Assembly (NCBI GenBank): GCA_030696435.1
Contig: JAUYSF010000450.1
Span: forward strand, 1-17,306
Source: Desulfoprunum sp.
GTDB lineage: Bacteria > Desulfobacterota > Desulfobulbia > Desulfobulbales > Desulfocapsaceae
Direction of reading: 5' to 3'
Length of the DNA stretch: 17,306 bases
The notes under the pieces are model-generated. The model saw only the letters and a program-made list of their open reading frames with translations. It had not been told where the DNA came from and did not search any database. Both the position numbers and the translations under genes were made by a program. This document shows, piece after piece, positions 989-16,856 of this stretch (its first letter is position 1; each line of letters begins with the position of its first letter).

Positions 989-1065
989 GGGCGCATAGCT
1001 CAGCTGGCTAGAGCCACCGGCTCATAACCGGTCGGTCGTAGGTTCGAATCCTACTGCGCCCACCA
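989..1065 (+). tRNA. tRNA with CAT anticodon, probably elongator tRNA-Met
   Basis: A full cloverleaf can be folded by eye. The acceptor stem is GGGCGCA (989-995) with TGCGCCC (1055-1061), followed by discriminator A and an encoded CCA. The D stem is GCTC/GAGC. The anticodon stem is ACCGG/CCGGT around loop CTCATAA, with anticodon CAT at 1023-1025. The T stem is GTAGG/CCTAC around TTCGAAT. The first base pair is G-C and the anticodon stem lacks the three G-C pairs of initiators, so this is not the initiator tRNA. A tRNA-Ile read through lysidine at C34 shares the CAT anticodon and cannot be fully excluded by eye. Confidence 0.97.
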
Positions 1066-2841: not shown

Positions 2842-2923
2842 ATCCGGGCACGAAGCAGTCAACGATGCAAAGAGTTCTCTTTTTTCCTTTTCTCTTTCCG
2901 ACTTTCCAACTACACTACTGACC

Positions 2924-3270
2924 GGAGCGGGTGCATGATCGCTCCGGTTTTTACCGGAGAGGAAAGTCCGAACTCTACAGGGCAGGATGGTTCGTAACAC
3001 GAACGCCGGGTGACCGGGGGAAAGTGCCACAGAAAACAAACCGCCCAAGTTATCGGGTAAGGGTGAAACGGCGAGGTAAGAGCTCACCGCTTCCGTGGTG
3101 ACACGGAAGGCAGGGTAAACCCCATCCAGAGCAAGACCAAATAGGGAGATGTTTGAGGGCGGCCCGTCCGAAATCTCCGGGTAGGTTGCAAGAGGTGTTG
3201 AGCGATCAACATCCCAGTGAAATGATCATGACCCTTTTCAGGGAACAGAATTCGGCTTATAGCCCGCTCC
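2924..3270 (+). ncRNA. rnpB: RNase P RNA, bacterial type A-like
   Basis: This is the catalytic RNA that trims tRNA 5' ends. The ends are set by helix P1, GGAGCGGG (2924-2931) with CCCGCTCC (3263-3270). P2 is seen as CATGATC (2934-2940) with GATCATG (about 3223-3229). The universally conserved core is present: GAGGAAAGTCCG near 2958-2969, the GGTAAGGGTGAAACGGCGAGGTAAGAG region near 3056-3082 and ACAGAATTCGGCTTATAG (3245-3262). The length of about 347 nt is typical. A TACACT box at 2911-2916 may be its -10 element, and a T-rich stretch follows at 3273-3282. The 109 nt from 3271 to the next gene show nothing else. Confidence 0.95.
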
Positions 3271-3379
3271 AATTTTTCTTTTCCAGGACAGCTTCTCCGT
3301 ATACCCAACGAGAATGTCTCTTGATACGTTTTGCCCGTCCTGCATTTTCCCTCTTGCACGTTAAAATTGGGCTTCGGCG

Positions 3380-4558
3380 ATGAACGCATCGGCTGCAGCC
3401 ATTATCCCCGCTGCCGGCAGCGGTTCCCGGATGAAGCTTGATCACCCCAAGCAGTTCCACATGCTGGCTGGATCGCCTCTTCTCATCCACACGGTTCGCG
3501 CATTTCTGCTCAATCCCAATATTGGCCGATGCATCGTTGTCGTCCCTGCTGACTGGCTTGAAACAACCCGCACACTTTTTGCCCAGTATGGTCTCGACCA
3601 GAAGACTCTTGCCATTACCGCCGGTGGTCGAAGAAGGCAGGATTCCGTCCAGGCCGGTCTCAAGCTCCTTGATGACTCCACCGATATTGTCCTCGTGCAT
3701 GACGGGGCCAGGCCACTAGTCAGTCAGGATCTCATCGACCGCTGTTATCAGGCAGCCAGGGAACACGGTGCAGCCATCGCCGCTGTCCCGGTCAAGGATA
3801 CCCTGAAAAAAGCCGGGACAGACCAGTATGTCGCGGCAACCATCGACCGTCACCGACTCTGGCAGGCCCAGACCCCACAGGCGGTTCAGCGCATTCTTCT
3901 CGAAAAGGCCTACAGGGAATCGGACGGAGAGGATGTTACCGACGAATCCTCTCTCCTCGAGCAGGCCGGTATCCCGGTTTTTCTTGTGGAGGGCTCGGAG
4001 ACAAACCTGAAAATCACGAGACCGGAAGATCTTCTTCTAGCGGAAAAAATCATGCAAAACGCGCATACTCCGCGAGTGCGGATCGGGCACGGTTTTGATG
4101 CCCACCGTTTCGCACCGGACAGGCCTCTTGTTTTGGGAGGTGTGAACATACCCCATTGCCTGGGTCTGGCCGGCCACTCAGACGCCGACGTCGTCACCCA
4201 TGCCCTCTGCGATGCTCTCCTCGGAGCCCTCGGGGCACGCGATATCGGCCACCACTTTCCCGACTCAGATAGCCGGTATTCCGGTATTTATTCTATCTTG
4301 CTTCTTGAAAAAGTGATGGCATATGTTGAAGAAAAAGAGTTTTCTCTCGGGAACGCTGATATCACCATAATATGTCAGGCACCTCGGTTGGCTCGCCATA
4401 TCCCCGCCATGCAGGAAATACTGGCAAAGGCCTGCCGGACAGACGTTGAATCGGTGAACATCAAGGCTACTACCACGGAAAAGATGGGTTATACCGGCCG
4501 CGAGGAGGGTATCAGCTGCCATGCAGTGGTCCTCCTTGAAAACCGGCACTACAACTGA
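3380..4558 (+). CDS. ispDF: Bifunctional IspD/IspF, MEP-pathway isoprenoid synthesis
   Basis: This 392-residue fusion carries out two non-consecutive steps of the methylerythritol phosphate pathway. The IspD part (about 1-228) adds CTP to MEP: it shows the nucleotide loop AAGSGSRM at 11-18, [11 protein letters not shown] at 84-94, VHDGARP at 106-112 and QTPQA at 164-168. The IspF part (about 232-390) closes the cyclodiphosphate ring: it has zinc ligands D240, H242 and H274, spaced exactly as D8, H10 and H42 of E. coli IspF, then [10 protein letters not shown] and a C-terminal [16 protein letters not shown]. Both active sites look intact. Such fusions are common in delta-, epsilon- and alphaproteobacteria. 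The ATG start fits the IspD N-terminus, but only a weak ribosome site is seen. The peptidase gene follows after 11 nt. Confidence 0.97.
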
Positions 4559-9705: not shown

Positions 9706-11313
9706 TCAATCCTCCACCCCCTTCTCCTCAAGACCATACCGCTTGACCTTCTTTAAAAGTCCCTGCCGCGAGATCTGCAACAGCTGAGCTGCCCGGGATT
9801 TATTGCCACCCGTCTCTTTGAGAGCTTTTTTGATCAGATCTATTTCCAGGCTTTTCACATTATCATCCAGCGCATATCCTGACGCATCAGCAGCTTTTTC
9901 TCGGCTCCGGTAATGTTTACCGTAAAATGCAACCACCTCACGGGAGCAGCAATCCGGCTGAATCACTTTACCGTTGACTGTCAGTGCCACCAGCCGCTCT
10001 ACCTCCTTTTGCAGTTGTCTGACATTTCCAGGCCAGGGGTATCTTTCGAAAACCTCTATAAGTTCTTGGGAAAAGCCAAGGACATTTTTCTTGAATTTCT
10101 TATTCGTTTCCTCAAGGAAGTGCTGTGCTAGCGGCAGGATATCCTCTTTCCTCTGCCGGAGGGGGGGAAGGAATATTTCCACCGAAAAAAGGCGAAAAAA
10201 GAGATCTTCCCGAAAAGTGCCCTTCCTAACCTCTGCTGCCAAATCCTTATTGGTTGCACTTATCAAGCGCACATCATAGGCTGTGATCTTGTTGCTGCCA
10301 AGTCGGCTACCTTCACCTTCTTGAATCGCCCTCAGAAATTTCGGTTGGATCTGCAGAGGCATCTCGGCAATTTCATCAAGAAAAAGAGTGCCGCCGCCAG
10401 CCTCTTCAAAACGACCTTTTCTCGCTGAGTCAGCACCGGAAAAAGCCCCTTTCTCATGCCCGAAAAATTCACTTTCAATCAATGTTTCGGGGATGCAGGC
10501 ACAATTGACCGGCACAAACTGCTCTTCCTTCCTCTCCCCTTTTTCATGGATCATCCGGGCAATCAATTCCTTGCCCGTTCCATTTTCTCCCTGAATGAGG
10601 ACATTGATGGGGCTATCACTGACAATTCTCACCAGTTCAAGGACCTCGCGCATTGCCGAGCTTTCAGCGATAATGCGCGTGCCCCTGACAGATGCTTGTG
10701 CCAACCTGTCAACCTCACTGTTCAAGTAGCCGGCTATACGTAGTATTTCCTGATTGAGAACAATTGATTCAATGGAAATCGACAGATAATGGGCCACCTC
10801 TTCAAGCTGCCGCATATCCTCTTCATTAAAACACTCATCCCGGGCCTTGTTTAAGAGCTGCACCGCACCGATAACCGCATTACCGCTCGGACTCTTAATC
10901 GGAGCGCAGAGCATGTTGTGACAGGTAAAGCCCGTCTGTTCAGCAACATGGAGATGGAATCCTTCGCGAGATTCAAGGGAATTATCGATAAGGCTCAAGC
11001 CCGAGCTGATAACACCACCGACGATACTGCCTTCCATAGGAGGTTCGATCTGTCGTTCGTTCAGTTCGGTACCGAAAATCGAACAAATTTTCCTACTGCC
11101 CAGCTCCATTATAAAAATGGTACATCGTTCTACAGCCATCAATTTTGGAAGTATCCGAGTATAGAATGTTACAAAAGCTCGGTAATCATCAATTGCCCAG
11201 GAATGAGCAACCTGTGACAACCTTTGCCTCAGAAGGGTGAGGTGGGTTCTTGAAGAAGTGAAAGAGTCGAGATCCTTATCTGGCATGAGTGTAACCCCTG
11301 TTGTCATTTTCAT
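9706..11313 (-). CDS. GAF-type sigma-54-dependent transcriptional activator (enhancer-binding protein)
   Basis: The 535-residue product activates sigma-54 RNA polymerase. It has an N-terminal GAF sensor (about 40-190), an AAA+ domain (about 212-450) and a Fis-type helix-turn-helix (about 490-530, NKSRAAQLLQISRQGLLKKVKR). The AAA+ part shows Walker A GENGTGKE at 242-249, Walker B LFLDE at 310-314 and Arg residues R368 and R374. The sigma-54 contact loop reads GAFSGA (289-294) instead of the usual GAFTGA. The GAF domain ends in NK...F...D (about 155-166), reminiscent of the NKFDE motif of cyclic-nucleotide GAF domains but lacking the last Glu. No receiver domain is present, so the ligand, not phosphorylation, should control it. 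GGGAG lies 6 nt before ATG 11313. The nearest sigma-54 promoter is divergent, at 11699. Confidence 0.95.
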   Translation of the reverse strand: MKMTTGVTLMPDKDLDSFTSSRTHLTLLRQRLSQVAHSWAIDDYRAFVTFYTRILPKLMAVERCTIFIMELGSRKICSIFGTELNERQIEPPMEGSIVGGVISSGLSLIDNSLESREGFHLHVAEQTGFTCHNMLCAPIKSPSGNAVIGAVQLLNKARDECFNEEDMRQLEEVAHYLSISIESIVLNQEILRIAGYLNSEVDRLAQASVRGTRIIAESSAMREVLELVRIVSDSPINVLIQGENGTGKELIARMIHEKGERKEEQFVPVNCACIPETLIESEFFGHEKGAFSGADSARKGRFEEAGGGTLFLDEIAEMPLQIQPKFLRAIQEGEGSRLGSNKITAYDVRLISATNKDLAAEVRKGTFREDLFFRLFSVEIFLPPLRQRKEDILPLAQHFLEETNKKFKKNVLGFSQELIEVFERYPWPGNVRQLQKEVERLVALTVNGKVIQPDCCSREVVAFYGKHYRSREKAADASGYALDDNVKSLEIDLIKKALKETGGNKSRAAQLLQISRQGLLKKVKRYGLEEKGVED

Positions 11314-11511: not shown

Positions 11512-11551
11512 GTGACAACTATAATACCAGCAATGATAGTCGCGTGACAAC
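11512..11551 (+). repeat. Direct repeat of GTGACAAC, 32 bp apart
   Basis: GTGACAAC occurs at 11512-11519 and 11544-11551, a centre spacing of 32 bp or about three helical turns. A related GTGACAC occurs at 11338-11344. The first copy is also part of GTTGT-G-ACAAC (11509-11519). These could be binding sites on one face of the helix upstream of the sigma-54 promoter. The rest of the 11314-11698 gap holds no gene I can support. Confidence 0.35.
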
Positions 11552-11698
11552 CTTGTTTACTCTTCCCCCCCTCCTAACAACCAAAACGGCATTATAAGCT
11601 TTTCCTTGGCCAAGCCCCCATTTCTTTATATCAAGTAACTATTTAATACCAAATCGGTTTTTTTGAACAAACAACATTCTTCCTTCCTCTTTGATTTT

Positions 11699-11715
11699 TT
11701 GGCACAATACCTGCT
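11699..11715 (+). promoter_or_regulatory. Sigma-54 (-24/-12) promoter
   Basis: TTGGCAC-AATAC-CTGCT matches the sigma-54 consensus TTGGCAC-N5-TTGCA closely. The invariant GG (11701-11702) and GC (11713-11714) are exactly 10 bp apart. Transcription would start near 11725, some 30 nt before the small gene at 11755. It stands in the divergent region upstream of the sigma-54 activator gene, its likely regulator. Confidence 0.7.
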
Positions 11716-11754
11716 AGAGGATATATCATATCTGCAAAAGAGTGCGGAGCCACA

Positions 11755-11886
11755 ATGAATGGAACTCGAGTTGGGGGGGCCCATCTCCAGAAAGCGGATC
11801 AGATAATTAATTATTCTGATTCTTCTCGCATACAGCACGTATCATCCATCGTGTCTATTTTTAACCGCAATACCGAGTTTTCATAG
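11755..11886 (+). CDS. Small protein of 43 residues, unknown, behind a sigma-54 promoter
   Basis: The ATG at 11755 is preceded by GGAG (11746-11749) with 5 nt spacing and lies about 30 nt after the expected sigma-54 transcription start. The reading frame gives 43 residues starting MNGTRVGGAHLQKADQIINY and ending FNRNTEFS before TAG. It is hydrophilic, without a membrane segment, signal peptide or Cys. I recognise no family. The next gene starts 31 nt later in a different frame, and a stop separates them, so the two are not halves of one broken frame in any simple way. The call rests on promoter, ribosome site and position rather than on homology, and the stretch could be a leader instead. Confidence 0.45.
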   Translation: MNGTRVGGAHLQKADQIINYSDSSRIQHVSSIVSIFNRNTEFS

Positions 11887-11917
11887 AATGAATTAAGTGC
11901 AGCGAGAGAGTGACAAT

Positions 11918-12151
11918 ATGAAATATGAAAGGAACAAGCAGAAAATCCCAGCTAATGTTGGAGAAAAGGATTTGATGTTTCGTGAGATAGGAAAGGGATT
12001 TATCTTAAGTAATCCGGCCCCGGATATGCCTAAAGGGCGCCGGTTGATCACCGCCTACGCTGACCAGTTCAACCGATCCTATATCCAAACCAATGGCCGA
12101 TATGAGCTCATAACCGAACAGCACCGCTACCTCGCCGTTTCAGGAAGGTGA
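11918..12151 (+). CDS. Small hypothetical protein (77 residues)
   Basis: I prefer ATG 11918, with a modest GAGAG about 8 nt upstream; an in-frame GTG at 11897 would give 84 residues. The product is basic and polar (MKYERNKQKIPANVGEKDL... ending ELITEQHRYLAVSGR), with no membrane segment, Cys pair or repeated motif. I recognise no family. It lies downstream of the sigma-54 promoter and the 43-residue gene, on the same strand, so it may be the second gene of a sigma-54-dependent transcript. The downstream stretch 12152-12374, up to the cyclase gene on the other strand, holds no feature I can support. Confidence 0.5.
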   Translation: MKYERNKQKIPANVGEKDLMFREIGKGFILSNPAPDMPKGRRLITAYADQFNRSYIQTNGRYELITEQHRYLAVSGR

Positions 12152-12374
12152 GTAGCCACACCATGGCGCCGATTTTTTAGATGTTTATGCAAGTTAATCT
12201 GCATTGATTGATATTCAACAGCAAAGAAAAATATCCGCTTGCCCCCCTGGCAGTATCCGGATCATTTTGAAAAGTTTTTGATTTTGATTTCAGTGCAGAT
12301 TTTTTTGTTGCAGCATGTTGATAAATGCAAGGCGTCAAGAAAACACCTTTCCACAAGCGCTCTCCGGGAGCGTA

Positions 12375-14999
12375 TTAATGAATTTTTAAGGCATTTCTTT
12401 CCATATCCTCCATGACATTCATAGGGCCACCGATATCAGAAATCTCTTTTCGGTCAACGACTTCATAAATCTTCATCTTCCCCCCTTTATCATCAATAGT
12501 CCTAACTCCCCAGGGATTGGCCAAAATGAATGATTTCACTTGGAGATAGGTGGAGTCGCTCATGAGAATCAGATCGGATTTTTCCCGGGTCAGCTCCTGA
12601 AGTCGGAAGGTTTCATTTACTACATCTCCTATAGCCGTGTACTCCATTTTTCTCTCGAAGCCTATATTCCCGACAATCGCTTCACCGGTATTCAGGCTTA
12701 TGCCAATCTTCAGTGGAATACCACATCGTTCCATGGATACCTTACTCACCTCATCGAGCATCTTCACCATTTCAATGGCCGCAAATGCGGCATCCAAGGC
12801 CGGATTACGGGTAGCAACAGGCGCACCAAAGATTGCCAGAAATCCGTCCCCGAGATACTTGTCCAGCACACCTTTGTGGCGAAGGATTATATTACCCATT
12901 TTCATATAGAAATAGTTCAACACTCCCACTACATCCTCAGTTGCCGCCAACTTGGACATCTCGGAATAGCCTCTGATATCGACATTGAAAACAGTAATGA
13001 TTTTTCGCTCACCATGAGCCGTATGATCCTGATCACCCTTCTCAAGAATTGAGTTGATAACTTCTTCCGGGACGTATTTCTGAAAAACGGTTCTGATGAG
13101 CCTTTCCTTCTCGGCCAGTTGCCTGGATTCAGTATGCAACCTCGTATTTTCAAGAGCTATGGCAGTTGACGAGGCGACTGATTTAATCGATTGCAGATCT
13201 TCTTCTGTAAAGGATCCCATCTTATTGATCAGCTGAACGACCCCTACTACACGACCATTACTGATCATTGGCACGCATGCGAGGCTTCTGGTTTTAAAAC
13301 CCGTTTTGTCATCTATGCCAGCAAAGAAATGTGGGCTTTCCTTGACATCCTGTATAACAACTGACTCACCAGTAGCCGCAACCCACCCGCATATACCCTG
13401 CCCAAGCCGCACCTGAGTGCCTTCAAGGTTTTTCCCGGCAATACCCGTTGCAGCATGGAATATCAGTGCCTCATGGTCAAGTAGCATGATAGTACCAGCC
13501 TCTACATTTATCAAATTGACCACCATATCAATAATGTAGTGGAGCACACGTCTGATATCAAAAGCGGACGATGTCAGCGCAATACCAATCCTGTTTAGGA
13601 TCTCAAGTTCAGTGCTCTTCGCTCGCTCCTTTGATAAGATTCGGGTCTGCTCCAGTGCCAGAGCAATACCGGTAACCAGCTGGGAAAACACTTTCTTTTC
13701 ATGGGGGCCATAGACATAGGGTTTTTCAGCGCCGAGACAGATAGAGCCAATTATCTTACCATTTGCATGCAGGCTGTCGACCATACAGGATTGAAGGCCG
13801 AGTTTAGTAAACATATCCCTCTCAAAAAATGAGTCCTCTGCAACAAGGTTATCGCAATCTACTCTTTCCATGACATCAATGGGTCTCTGGAAAAGAGATG
13901 ATTTCTTTTCCAGTACAATTTCCCCTGGAAGGCCGGAGGCAAATTTTCGAAAGGTCCGGATCAACCGCAGCTCATTGGTTGTTTGATCGAGCAGGGCGAT
14001 CCCCAGCCACTGATGGGGAAGCACTTCATAGACCTTGTCTGCAACAGCGGCCAGAAGGTCATTTTCCTGAATGTCAGAGTTGATGATCTGGAGAATGGAT
14101 AGAATAGCTTGCAGCTCACGACCCGTTTCTTTCTCTTTCGTCCCCAGTTCCTGCATTCTCAAGCTGGAACTGGTCGCATTGAAAAATGTTGCGAGAAAAT
14201 TCAATATACTTTCATCCCAAGGTTTATCGGTACACTGAGTAAGTATCACCACCGCCTGTTGACCATTATGATAGGCCAAGGGAACAGCGGCTGCCATACG
14301 GCAATCTTCCGAAAACAGTTCCTGCCAGTTTGTAAAGCTTTCATGTAAAAACAAAGGTTTATTGTCATCGAAGGCTTTTTTTCCGACAAACTCAGAGAGT
14401 GCAAACTGTACGGAAGTACTTGCAAATCCATCCCCGGCACAATAGACACAGGCGACTGAACTCGGACCTTCACCTCTGGCAGCGATAAACACGGCTGCGC
14501 CTCCTGCACCAGTGATATCGAGAGCTTTATCAACCGCAAGAGATATCAGCGACTGCGGTTTGAGTCGCGAAGCCGCGAGAGTATTGATATCTTTGATAGC
14601 CTGGATTTCCAGCATGCGCTTTGTCAAGGATTCACTGGTCTGCTGGATATTTTGCCTCATAGCATCGGCAAGAAGCGAAATATTCTTCAGCTCGCTCTCC
14701 CCTGCTTGAGACGTAAGCTCTCTGCCTCTTTCCTTTCCCGACATCTTAGCCTCAATGGCGACAATCCCTTCGGCTATCTGTTTCAGGATGACATAGCCGC
14801 CTAGCGAAACAACCAACATGCCGAGAAGGTAGTACATAAGATCCTGACTACCGAGAAGATCTGTTTTCAAGCCGAGAAACAGTAACCCCAAAAGAGGACC
14901 GATGAAAAAAAGTGCGAAAGCAAGTGTCATTCGGTAAAAAACACTGTTCGCGTGGAGTGATAAAAACTTCTGCAGGGAGCTTTTAGACAATAATTTCAT
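12375..14999 (-). CDS. Membrane-anchored class III adenylate cyclase with three GAF domains
   Basis: The product is 874 residues from ATG 14999, chosen because AGGAA (15009-15005) stands 5 nt upstream; a TTG six codons earlier has no such site. Two membrane segments lie at about 23-44 and 54-74. A linker and three GAF-like domains follow, at about 135-285, 305-455 and 465-620. The class III catalytic domain (about 665-830) keeps metal ligands D674 (FNVDIRGY) and D718 (KYLGDGF), adenine-selecting K714 and D792 (EYTAIGD), and transition-state N795 and R799. It should therefore make cAMP. The third GAF ends NKMGSFTEED, close to the NKFDE signature of cyclic-nucleotide GAF domains. The enzyme probably works as a dimer at the inner membrane, gated by ligands on the GAF domains. 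An HD phosphodiesterase-like gene is divergent from it. Confidence 0.95.
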   Translation of the reverse strand: MKLLSKSSLQKFLSLHANSVFYRMTLAFALFFIGPLLGLLFLGLKTDLLGSQDLMYYLLGMLVVSLGGYVILKQIAEGIVAIEAKMSGKERGRELTSQAGESELKNISLLADAMRQNIQQTSESLTKRMLEIQAIKDINTLAASRLKPQSLISLAVDKALDITGAGGAAVFIAARGEGPSSVACVYCAGDGFASTSVQFALSEFVGKKAFDDNKPLFLHESFTNWQELFSEDCRMAAAVPLAYHNGQQAVVILTQCTDKPWDESILNFLATFFNATSSSLRMQELGTKEKETGRELQAILSILQIINSDIQENDLLAAVADKVYEVLPHQWLGIALLDQTTNELRLIRTFRKFASGLPGEIVLEKKSSLFQRPIDVMERVDCDNLVAEDSFFERDMFTKLGLQSCMVDSLHANGKIIGSICLGAEKPYVYGPHEKKVFSQLVTGIALALEQTRILSKERAKSTELEILNRIGIALTSSAFDIRRVLHYIIDMVVNLINVEAGTIMLLDHEALIFHAATGIAGKNLEGTQVRLGQGICGWVAATGESVVIQDVKESPHFFAGIDDKTGFKTRSLACVPMISNGRVVGVVQLINKMGSFTEEDLQSIKSVASSTAIALENTRLHTESRQLAEKERLIRTVFQKYVPEEVINSILEKGDQDHTAHGERKIITVFNVDIRGYSEMSKLAATEDVVGVLNYFYMKMGNIILRHKGVLDKYLGDGFLAIFGAPVATRNPALDAAFAAIEMVKMLDEVSKVSMERCGIPLKIGISLNTGEAIVGNIGFERKMEYTAIGDVVNETFRLQELTREKSDLILMSDSTYLQVKSFILANPWGVRTIDDKGGKMKIYEVVDRKEISDIGGPMNVMEDMERNALKIH

Positions 15000-15213
15000 T
15001 ACAGTTCCTGACAACAATACCCAATATTAAATTATATGTGCTCAGGCCTTATTCCTCGTTTGCTTTAGAATAAAACCCCTTCAGCCTGTTTTCTTTCGAC
15101 CCAGAGGGGATCAACTCGCCTCATGAATCAGCAAGGCTAACCACCTGAAAAGCCGACGACATAAAGACATAATCCTTACATGTCAGGTCGGATATTGTCA
15201 AACAAATAGAGCC

Positions 15214-15411: not shown

Positions 15412-16317
15412 ATGGATACTCATCACATGACAGAAATATTTGAGGGTGACAAACACGGGGATTCCCACGAGGAAATCCTCCAAATCGCCCTCCTTATTCA
15501 CCCCAGCGTGGACTGTGCGCTAATTTCTCAGGCACATGAAGATCTGACAAGGATCTATTCAGGCACCTTCCCTGGATTTCGGCTCAGCAGTCCCAAATAT
15601 CACAACCTGCGCCATGCTCGCCTGGTCGCCCTCGCCGCTGTTCGGCTTTTTCACGGTCTCTGGTGTGAAGGGAAGACTTTTTCGCCGGAGACCGTAACCC
15701 AGGGCCTTTTGAGCGCCTTTTTTCACGATACCGGCATGTTGTTGACGGATTCCGACACGGCCCTAACGGGTTCGGAATATTTCAAATACCACGAAGAACG
15801 ATCCGTCACTTTTGTACAAAGGTATATCGAATCATCGACAATCCCCACATTCTACGCAGGCAATTGTGCCCTCATTATCCGTTGTACTGATCTCAACCGC
15901 GATCCCAGGACATTTGCCTTTCCTTCTGAGGAAATCCGTCTAGCTGGACAGGTAGTAGGGTCGGCCGACATCCTTGCGCAGATGGCGGATCGGTATTATC
16001 TGGAATGCCTTCCCCTGCTTTTTCAGGAACAAAAAGATGGAGACGCCCACAAGCATGATTCTCCCCTGGAACTCATGCAACGCACAGCGCAGTTTTATCA
16101 TACCACTATAACCGAGCGGTTACAGATCGTCTTTGATGATATTTCCCGGGCCATGTACAGCCATTTTCGAGAACGCTGGAACATTGAGGGAGATTTCTAC
16201 TCAAATTCTATCCGGAAAAATGTCGCCTACCTCGAAACAATCATAGCTAGATGCAAGTCGGAACAGGATTGTCTCAAGAGACATCTCAGACGCACTCCTC
16301 CTGCCCATTCCTCCTGA
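15412..16317 (+). CDS. HD-domain phosphohydrolase, resembling cyclic-nucleotide phosphodiesterases
   Basis: The 301-residue product carries a metal-dependent HD domain at about 55-190. It reads YHNLRHARLV at 63-72, then H105-D106 in AFFHDTGM, H127-E128 further on and D186 in GSADILAQMADR. The YHNxxH...HD...D pattern is that of class I cyclic-nucleotide phosphodiesterases, which hydrolyse cAMP or cGMP, more than of HD-GYP or (p)ppGpp hydrolases. No membrane segment or sensor domain is visible; the C-terminal 100 residues are helical and charged. AGGAT lies 7 nt before ATG 15412. The gene is divergent from an adenylate cyclase, so degrading cAMP is a natural guess. Other HD substrates such as nucleotides remain possible. 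It ends 49 nt from a convergent small gene. Confidence 0.8.
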   Translation: MDTHHMTEIFEGDKHGDSHEEILQIALLIHPSVDCALISQAHEDLTRIYSGTFPGFRLSSPKYHNLRHARLVALAAVRLFHGLWCEGKTFSPETVTQGLLSAFFHDTGMLLTDSDTALTGSEYFKYHEERSVTFVQRYIESSTIPTFYAGNCALIIRCTDLNRDPRTFAFPSEEIRLAGQVVGSADILAQMADRYYLECLPLLFQEQKDGDAHKHDSPLELMQRTAQFYHTTITERLQIVFDDISRAMYSHFRERWNIEGDFYSNSIRKNVAYLETIIARCKSEQDCLKRHLRRTPPAHSS

Positions 16318-16366: not shown

Positions 16367-16570
16367 TCATTTTTGCCTTGGATCATGGCCTGTTTCAAAC
16401 ATTTCAAAAAGATCATAAAAGAGCCGTGTCACCGCACTGAAATGGGTGACAGAACCCGAACTAGCATAGGCCTTGGTCAACTCCAGGGCCTTGAGAAAAC
16501 TCTCCTGACTCTCAGATGTCTGCGGTGCCTTGAGGGCCTGCACCAACCTCTGACCAATATCTTCGTTCAT
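16367..16570 (-). CDS. Small hypothetical protein (67 residues)
   Basis: The start is ATG 16570, with AGGAG nine nt upstream; an open frame extending to 16672 lacks a ribosome site, so I exclude it. The product, MNEDIGQRLVQALKAPQT..., is mildly acidic and probably helical (LVQALKAP, FLKALELTKAY, LFYDLFEMF), with no membrane segment or Cys. I recognise no family. It lies convergent to the HD gene and in the same direction as the next unknown gene, 286 nt away. The 286-nt gap between them contains a poorer open frame (16593-16820) that I do not accept. Confidence 0.55.
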   Translation of the reverse strand: MNEDIGQRLVQALKAPQTSESQESFLKALELTKAYASSGSVTHFSAVTRLFYDLFEMFETGHDPRQK

Positions 16571-16856
16571 TTCAAATCGCTCCTTTCGCGTTTTATAGAG
16601 ACAACCATTTTTTCTGTTGACCGCTTTTGGCCGCCGCATTATCCAGGCACACCGGACTTTCAGAATCTTCAAGAATAGCTAAAGAGAAGGCGTTTCCTTG
16701 TTCCATGACCGGCCACAGGAGGGAGAGAGATGGTTCATTTTCATCTCGTTGCCGATAAATACAGCACACTCTCTTTGTCAGATGGTGCATTGAAAGAGAT
16801 CTCTTGCGAGCGAAACACAATATTTATTTAATCAGAACTCCCCCCATGATAGACAA

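What the first reader, a model, noticed from the sequence alone, without database searches (positions are those of the whole stretch)
11699..12151. Sigma-54 promoter driving two small unrecognised proteins, divergent from a GAF-type activator
A near-consensus -24/-12 element (TTGGCAC-N5-CTGCT, GG-N10-GC) sits 30-40 nt before a 43-codon frame with its own ribosome site, followed by a 77-codon frame. The divergent gene encodes a sigma-54 activator. The layout suggests a dedicated regulator-target pair whose output is small proteins of unknown role. This is the best candidate in the window for something undescribed.
Basis: partly seen in the sequence, partly recalled or inferred. Interest (0 to 1): 0.7.

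Follow-up and report, generated by a model that had tools for sequence, protein, structure and literature searches.

The report
Sigma-54 small-protein and RNA unit
In a family of bacteria related to known sulfate reducers, a dedicated activator appears to switch on one short transcript that encodes a conserved small protein of unknown function and ends in a conserved hairpin RNA with a C-rich loop, so the output is probably both a protein and a regulatory RNA.

Summary
The promoter is real: TGGCACAATACCTGCT (11700-11715) has a score reached in 0.15% of 2000 shuffles, and a strong -24/-12 element lies upstream of the 77-codon gene in 14 of 16 linked loci, window included. That frame is a real, undescribed small-protein family: 30 of 257 order genomes, all in one family. 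It lies divergent from the GAF-type activator at 16 of 16 loci outside genus g6 where both could be read, with shared operator-like sites (24 against 0.46 shuffled). The 43-codon frame is not supported as a gene: its only database match is an identical copy.

Downstream (12194-12307) is a conserved hairpin RNA with a covarying stem and a central C-run in 11 of 11 sequences. Two genomes keep promoter, operators and RNA without the small-protein gene. A different RNA, more conserved than the protein, takes its place in four genomes. In genus g6 the activator's divergent gene is a sigma-70-family factor. Best reading: an activator-controlled protein-plus-RNA unit. Targets, signal and expression are untested.

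The parts
9706..11313 (-). GAF / sigma-54 AAA+ / Fis-type HTH activator (bEBP), the presumed regulator
   Evidence: Pfam Sigma54_activat 223.6 bits, HTH_8, GAF; no NCBIfam cut-off reached in the 25 rows shown of 32; orthologs at E<=1e-120 in 39 of 93 family genomes
11291..11305 (+). operator-like site GTAACCCCTGTTGTC at the activator start (3 mismatches to GTAAACNNNGTTTAC, a weak match)
   Evidence: similar sites near the activator start in relatives
11546..11560 (+). operator-like site GACAACCTTGTTTAC (2 mismatches), 154 nt upstream of the -24 element (enhancer position)
   Evidence: 24 sites with <=2 mismatches in 16 linked loci against 0.46 in dinucleotide shuffles
11700..11715 (+). sigma-54 promoter TGGCACAATACCTGCT (-24/-12); predicted start near 11726
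11768..11787 (+). leader hairpin GAGUUGGG-GGGG-CCCAUCUC with G-rich loop (one U-U mismatch in the stem)
   Evidence: 6 of 16 linked leaders have a GGGG-loop hairpin against 1.16 expected
11755..11886 (+). 43-codon frame, probably not a gene (overlaps the leader hairpin)
   Evidence: only an identical record found; not conserved in G003/G004 leaders
11918..12151 (+). 77-codon small-protein gene (orf77), conserved family of unknown function
12194..12307 (+). 3' structured RNA (type A): rod hairpin, outer arms 12196-12207 / 12290-12301, then a U-tract; C6 run at 12242-12247 in the apical region

Best explanation
The region is a locally paired sigma-54 unit. The GAF-domain activator (9706-11313) binds GTAAACNNNGTTTAC-like sites in the divergent intergenic region and, on an unidentified signal, drives RpoN-dependent transcription from 11700-11715. 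The transcript carries a leader hairpin with a G-rich loop, one conserved small protein (77 aa, predicted small beta fold), and a 3' hairpin RNA with a C-run loop that in this genome also looks like the terminator. I think the transcript has two outputs: the small protein, and a C-loop RNA that pairs with G-rich RNA (its own leader in some species, other mRNAs in others). Shown here by sequence: promoter, linkage, operator enrichment, protein conservation, RNA conservation and covariation, RNA present where the protein gene is absent. Inferred: activator binding, RpoN dependence, translation, release of the RNA, base pairing, targets, signal.
For: Promoter score >=19 upstream of orf77 in 14 of 16 linked loci against 0.6% of shuffles. 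Operator-like sites: 24 against 0.46 shuffled. Divergent arrangement at 16 of 16 readable non-g6 loci. Nested presence: 30 of 39 activator genomes, 0 of 54 others. Purifying selection on the protein. Type A trailer RNA: 12-bp outer stem, 97.7% of cells paired, covariation score reached by 0 of 500 shuffles and by no slid control; a central C-run of >=4 in 11 of 11 against 1.5 expected; four or more Cs with unpaired probability >=0.5 in 10 of 11. G033 and G141 have promoter, operators and RNA without orf77. G032 has three tandem RNA copies with the same C-loop. A second RNA at the same place in four genomes is 78-96% identical in DNA, while the proteins of these four are 31-74% identical.
Against: No expression data. 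The trailer could be just a terminator: 7 of 11 copies end in a run of five or more U. Two weaker measures of the stem are less striking: 9 of 500 shuffles reach the 5 pairs with double changes and 66 of 500 the number of pair types. No trailer of either type was seen in five loci of genera g14, g15 and g3 nor recognised in g6 (one weak match in G154 lies on a contig with neither gene), so the RNA is not part of the unit everywhere. The leader G-loop is present in only 5 of 9 linked loci with the type A trailer. No Hfq was found in this 93%-complete genome. Genome-wide operator-like sites are fewer than the reversed-pattern control (59 against 99 in ten genomes), and the window's own two sites have 2 and 3 mismatches. 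The operator, G-run and C-run patterns were noticed before they were tested, and the sequences are related.
Confidence: 0.6

Rival explanations
1. The trailer is only an unusually long intrinsic terminator of a sigma-54 small-protein gene; all function lies in the protein.
For: A U-run of five or more follows the stem in 7 of 11 sequences, the window included; in the window the hairpin lies between convergent genes; loci of three genera lack it.
Against: 4 of 11 have no such U-run, and in G032 the second copy has none and the third has one only a few bases beyond the stem. A central C-run is kept in 11 of 11. The RNA is present in two genomes without orf77. The type C RNA is 78-96% identical in DNA among four genomes whose proteins are 31-74% identical.
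Confidence: 0.25
2. The 5' G-loop and 3' C-loop form a kissing contact inside one transcript that controls translation or decay of orf77 in cis (this overlaps in part with the best explanation).
For: G-loop hairpins with differing stems in g1, g18, g16 and g14 leaders, 5 of the 6 with a C-loop trailer; by eye no strong ribosome site precedes orf77 in the three g1 genomes.
Against: 4 of 9 linked type A loci and both orf77-less loci (leaders read by eye) lack a leader GGGG loop; the minimum-energy fold of the window transcript does not pair the two (a method that cannot show pseudoknots).
Confidence: 0.2
3. One reading: two small proteins are the output, encoded by the 43- and 77-codon frames.
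For: The 43-codon frame has an ATG with an upstream GGAG, 29 nt after the predicted start.
Against: No relative other than an identical record, no ATG in the matching place in G004; the conserved part of the leader is the hairpin.
Confidence: 0.05

Closest known systems
Desulfovibrio vulgaris sigma-54 regulons with non-coding RNA targets (DVU2359, DVU0653, DVU0679; PMC4641369 and PMC3333781, passages seen)
   Same: Sulfate reducer; activator gene beside a sigma-54 promoter with an ncRNA as predicted or mapped target; DVU2359 is a single-component activator divergent from such a promoter
   Different: There the listed targets are ncRNAs; here the unit also encodes a conserved protein and has a C-loop hairpin. 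Sequence relation of the RNAs or of DVU2359 to these was not tested.
GlnZ, an sRNA released from the 3' UTR of glnA mRNA (PMC9731577, abstract and outline seen)
   Same: A 3' UTR RNA with a separate regulatory role on an mRNA induced under nitrogen limitation (sigma-54 control of glnA is recalled)
   Different: GlnZ is Hfq-dependent and sits on an enzyme mRNA; no Hfq was found here
Dual-function RNAs such as VcdRP (PMC8672173, search listing only) and SgrS (PMC4021124, search listing only; its small protein is recalled)
   Same: One RNA with a small protein and a pairing RNA
   Different: Target pairing is not shown here; the promoter type of those RNAs was not read
QseF regulon, glmY sRNA and rpoE (PMC6075780, abstract start in search listing)
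   Same: A sigma-54 activator controls a small RNA and a sigma factor; here a sigma-70-family gene is the divergent gene in genus g6
   Different: Here a one-component GAF regulator and other genes; no relation tested
Desulfotalea-1 RNA motif (PMC2864571, one table passage seen)
   Same: Candidate RNA named after an organism of the same wider group (recalled)
   Different: Not compared: the table passage gives no Rfam number for it, so the Rfam scan may not cover it

Membership tests
Sigma-54 promoter | GG-N10-GC near TGGCAC-N5-TTGCW | tested here: met
Sigma-54 promoter | RpoN-dependent transcription | not testable with these tools
   an rpoN-type gene is present; no expression data
Sigma-54 enhancer-binding protein | AAA+ sigma-54 domain with GAFTGA-type loop and DNA-binding HTH | tested here: met
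   Pfam; GAFSGA in the translation, a variant that PMC4641369 lists as compatible with activation
NorR / NifA / PrdR equivalogs | curated NCBIfam score cut-off | tested here: not met
   338.2 of 476, 324.3 of 528.85, 344.4 of 795 bits
Known Pfam or NCBIfam protein family for orf77 | match to a model | tested here: not met
   0 families at E<=1 in Pfam and at E<=0.1 in NCBIfam
Known Rfam RNA family (type A trailer and leader) | covariance-model match | tested here: not met
   0 matches at E<=5 in 11600-12420
Dual-function RNA | translated small ORF | tested here: inconclusive
   purifying selection; no ribosome data
Dual-function RNA | base pairing with a target RNA | not tested
   only loop complementarity with the own leader was looked at
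Desulfotalea-1 | consensus sequence and structure | not tested
   no model or alignment of it was available in the calls made

The most novel reading that the evidence does not exclude
A new sigma-54-driven dual-function RNA family of Desulfocapsaceae-like bacteria. A C-loop 3' RNA, possibly working without Hfq, pairs with G-loop hairpins (its own 5' leader and further G-rich mRNAs), acts together with a new small beta-fold protein, and can persist where the protein gene is absent; the same activator line was rewired to a sigma-70-family factor in one genus.
Probability: 0.3. Interest if true: 0.75.

Novelty: new variant of a known kind. Interest (0 to 1): 0.55.

Why it matters
Activators of this class are numerous in a model sulfate reducer and the roles of many are unknown (PMC4641369, abstract start in the listing). 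Here the target is pinned to one transcript with a defined protein family, operator-like sites and an RNA, so it can be tested directly. If the RNA is functional it adds a structured RNA that gave no Rfam match and a protein-plus-RNA output under sigma-54 control, in a genome where no Hfq was found. The switch to a sigma-70-family factor in genus g6 would be a clear case of regulator rewiring.

Full report
What the sequence shows. The window is contig C423 of a 3.8-Mb assembly, 93% complete. The activator 9706-11313 (-) has GAF, sigma-54 AAA+ and Fis-type HTH domains. A -24/-12 element, TGGCACAATACCTGCT, lies at 11700-11715 on the other strand. Two frames follow, 11755-11886 (43 codons) and 11918-12151 (77 codons). 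The next gene, with three GAF stretches and a nucleotide cyclase domain, is convergent and ends at 12375.

The 77-codon frame is a gene. A protein search of 58 genomes (own included) found it in 16, and a profile search of 257 order genomes found it in 30, all in family f1. A profile search of 5.8 billion proteins gave 150 relatives at E<=1e-3, of which 120 were listed; the readable names were 'hypothetical protein', with organisms such as Desulfoprunum, Desulforhopalus, Desulfopila and Desulfobulbaceae. The contig length shown for a Desulforhopalus hit (402505) equals that of G017 contig 4, and NCBI places Desulforhopalus in Desulfocapsaceae, so f1 is probably that family. This is an inference; NCBI places Desulfoprunum in Desulfobulbaceae. 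In three pairwise comparisons within the genus pS is 0.69-1.0 and pN 0.16-0.26. No Pfam or NCBIfam model matches.

The 43-codon frame is not supported. One record in the database matched it, identical, without source and on a 2869-base contig; the tool lists proteins of the window itself without source. In G003 the matching leader has other frames, and in G004 there is no ATG before the G-run. What the leaders of the genus share is GAGTTGGGGGGG followed by CC.

Regulator and target belong together outside g6. There are 18 non-g6 orf77 loci; in 16, the window included, the upstream could be read, and in all 16 the activator ortholog is divergent. In the other two (G020, G006) the contig begins at the gene; the G020 activator contig carries operator-like sites and a sigma-54 element in the stretch before its edge (L200). 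All 30 genomes with orf77 have the activator at E<=1e-120, 9 of the 39 activator genomes lack orf77, and none of the 54 family genomes without the activator has it (lists compared by eye; related genomes are not independent, and some assemblies are incomplete). In the 300 nt upstream of the protein match, a promoter score >=19 occurs in 14 of 16 linked loci (shuffles 0.6%) and 10 of 13 g6 loci (shuffles 1.8%); the exceptions are L022 (17.0) and L189 (17.7) among the linked loci, and L030 (18.7), L180 (13.0) and L183 (15.0) in g6. Sites close to GTAAACNNNGTTTAC: 24 with <=2 mismatches in the 16 linked regions, mean 0.46 and maximum 3 in 100 dinucleotide shuffles; 15 of 16 regions have at least one. 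Taking sites with <=3 mismatches, one starts 146-204 nt upstream of the -24 element in 15 of 16 loci, all but L021 (positions). The motif was deduced from these regions, so the enrichment is partly by construction. The g6 orf77 upstreams have no excess (3 sites, shuffled mean 3.2), and genome-wide counts in ten genomes are below control (59 against 99).

A structured RNA follows the gene. Reading the 3' regions of 31 loci showed a hairpin of about 110 nt in the window and relatives. Eleven sequences from genera g1, g18, g2, g16 and g13 were aligned. RNAalifold gives a 12-pair outer stem with double changes at 5 pairs. On that stem 97.7% of cells pair; the covariation score was reached by 0 of 500 shuffles and by no slid control, the 5 double-change pairs by 9 of 500, and the number of pair types by 66 of 500. 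Two pairs at the base hold the 3 unpaired cells. The centre of the hairpin has a run of at least four C in 11 of 11, against 1.5 expected from shuffled cores; four or more Cs have an unpaired probability >=0.5 in 10 of 11, and two in G022. A U-run of five or more follows in 7 of 11. A covariance model finds the RNA in 12 of 93 family genomes and in 11 of 257 order genomes with fewer candidates scored. Eleven are the training genomes, where the RNA lies only at this locus; the twelfth, G154, is a weak match (3.8e-4) elsewhere. G032 has three tandem copies that keep the same C-loop. Rfam has no match.

The RNA occurs without the protein gene. G033 (99% complete) and G141 (63% complete) have the activator, operator-like sites, a sigma-54 element (21.2 and 19.7) and the hairpin, but no orf77 in the locus (frames read) or at the threshold of the genome search. 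This is the strongest sign that the RNA has its own role.

A second RNA (type C) takes the place in G008, G024, G020 and G011 (genera g5, g17, g8). In the order search its DNA was found at this place in these four; two other matches covered 21-26 bases only. Over the aligned RNA the four are 78-96% identical in DNA, their proteins 31-74% identical. The 15-pair stem has 98.3% of cells paired and 4 pairs with double changes; 1 of 500 shuffles reaches the covariation score, 7 of 500 the double-change pairs, 402 of 500 the number of pair types. It carries a C6 run next to its stem rather than in a loop. With four sequences this is modest evidence, and no common origin with type A was shown. Five loci of g14, g15 and g3 have neither RNA in the 250-700 nt read.

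Leader hairpins. In 6 of 16 linked leaders a stem of at least 4 bp closes a loop with GGGG (1.16 expected): three g1 genomes, G021, G032 and G017, with different stems. Five of these six also have a C-loop trailer, but 4 of 9 linked type A loci have no such leader hairpin. A G-loop to C-loop contact within or between transcripts is therefore possible, not shown.

Rewiring in g6. Of 17 g6 genomes with the activator, 11 loci were inspected; one had too little upstream. In the other 10 a divergent long frame (341-408 codons) is present. Three were read in full, and one was scanned as a sigma-70-family factor (106.2 bits, cut-off 42.9). 7 of 10 have an operator-like site with <=2 mismatches and 7 of 10 a promoter score >=19, six of these 72-74 nt before the frame. 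So the same activator line seems to control a sigma factor there, while orf77 sits elsewhere behind its own sigma-54 element. All 25 genomes searched have a related factor; outside g6 the best match is 50-53% identical.

Function. The small protein is predicted as four strands with moderate confidence and has no usable structural relative in the searches made. The signal sensed by the GAF domain is unknown. Known parallels are sigma-54 activators with ncRNA targets in Desulfovibrio (PMC4641369 and PMC3333781, passages), a 3' UTR sRNA (PMC9731577, abstract and outline), and dual-function RNAs (PMC8672173, listing only). This unit works like these in outline; membership in a dual-function class is not shown, because pairing was not tested. 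No Hfq was found in this assembly, and other RNA chaperones were not looked for. The published Desulfotalea-1 motif (PMC2864571, one table passage) could not be compared.

Verdict.

Noticed in passing
2923-3275 (+) and 989-1062 (+): Bacterial RNase P RNA (class A) and a tRNA.
   Followed up: no
3380-4558 (+): A 392-codon frame that reads as a fused IspD-IspF enzyme; name recalled from the sequence, no family search run.
   Followed up: no
12375-15017 (-): 880-aa protein with three GAF stretches and a nucleotide cyclase domain, convergent to orf77 in g1, g18 and g2 loci.
   Followed up: partly
L209:3414-4514 and other g6 loci: Sigma-70-family factor divergent from the activator in genus g6.
   Followed up: partly
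L020, L026, L027, L191: Type C RNA downstream of orf77, more conserved than the protein.
   Followed up: partly
L025 (G032:C58:10932-11286): Three tandem copies of the type A hairpin with an identical C-loop.
   Followed up: yes
G005:C2:789551 and other single operator-like sites: Isolated GTAAACNNNGTTTAC-like sites elsewhere in the genomes, in total below control.
   Followed up: no
15412-16317 (+) and 16367-16672 (-): A 301-aa protein with a weak HD-CE match (below cut-off) and a 101-aa protein without a Pfam match, both kept in G003 and G004.
   Followed up: no
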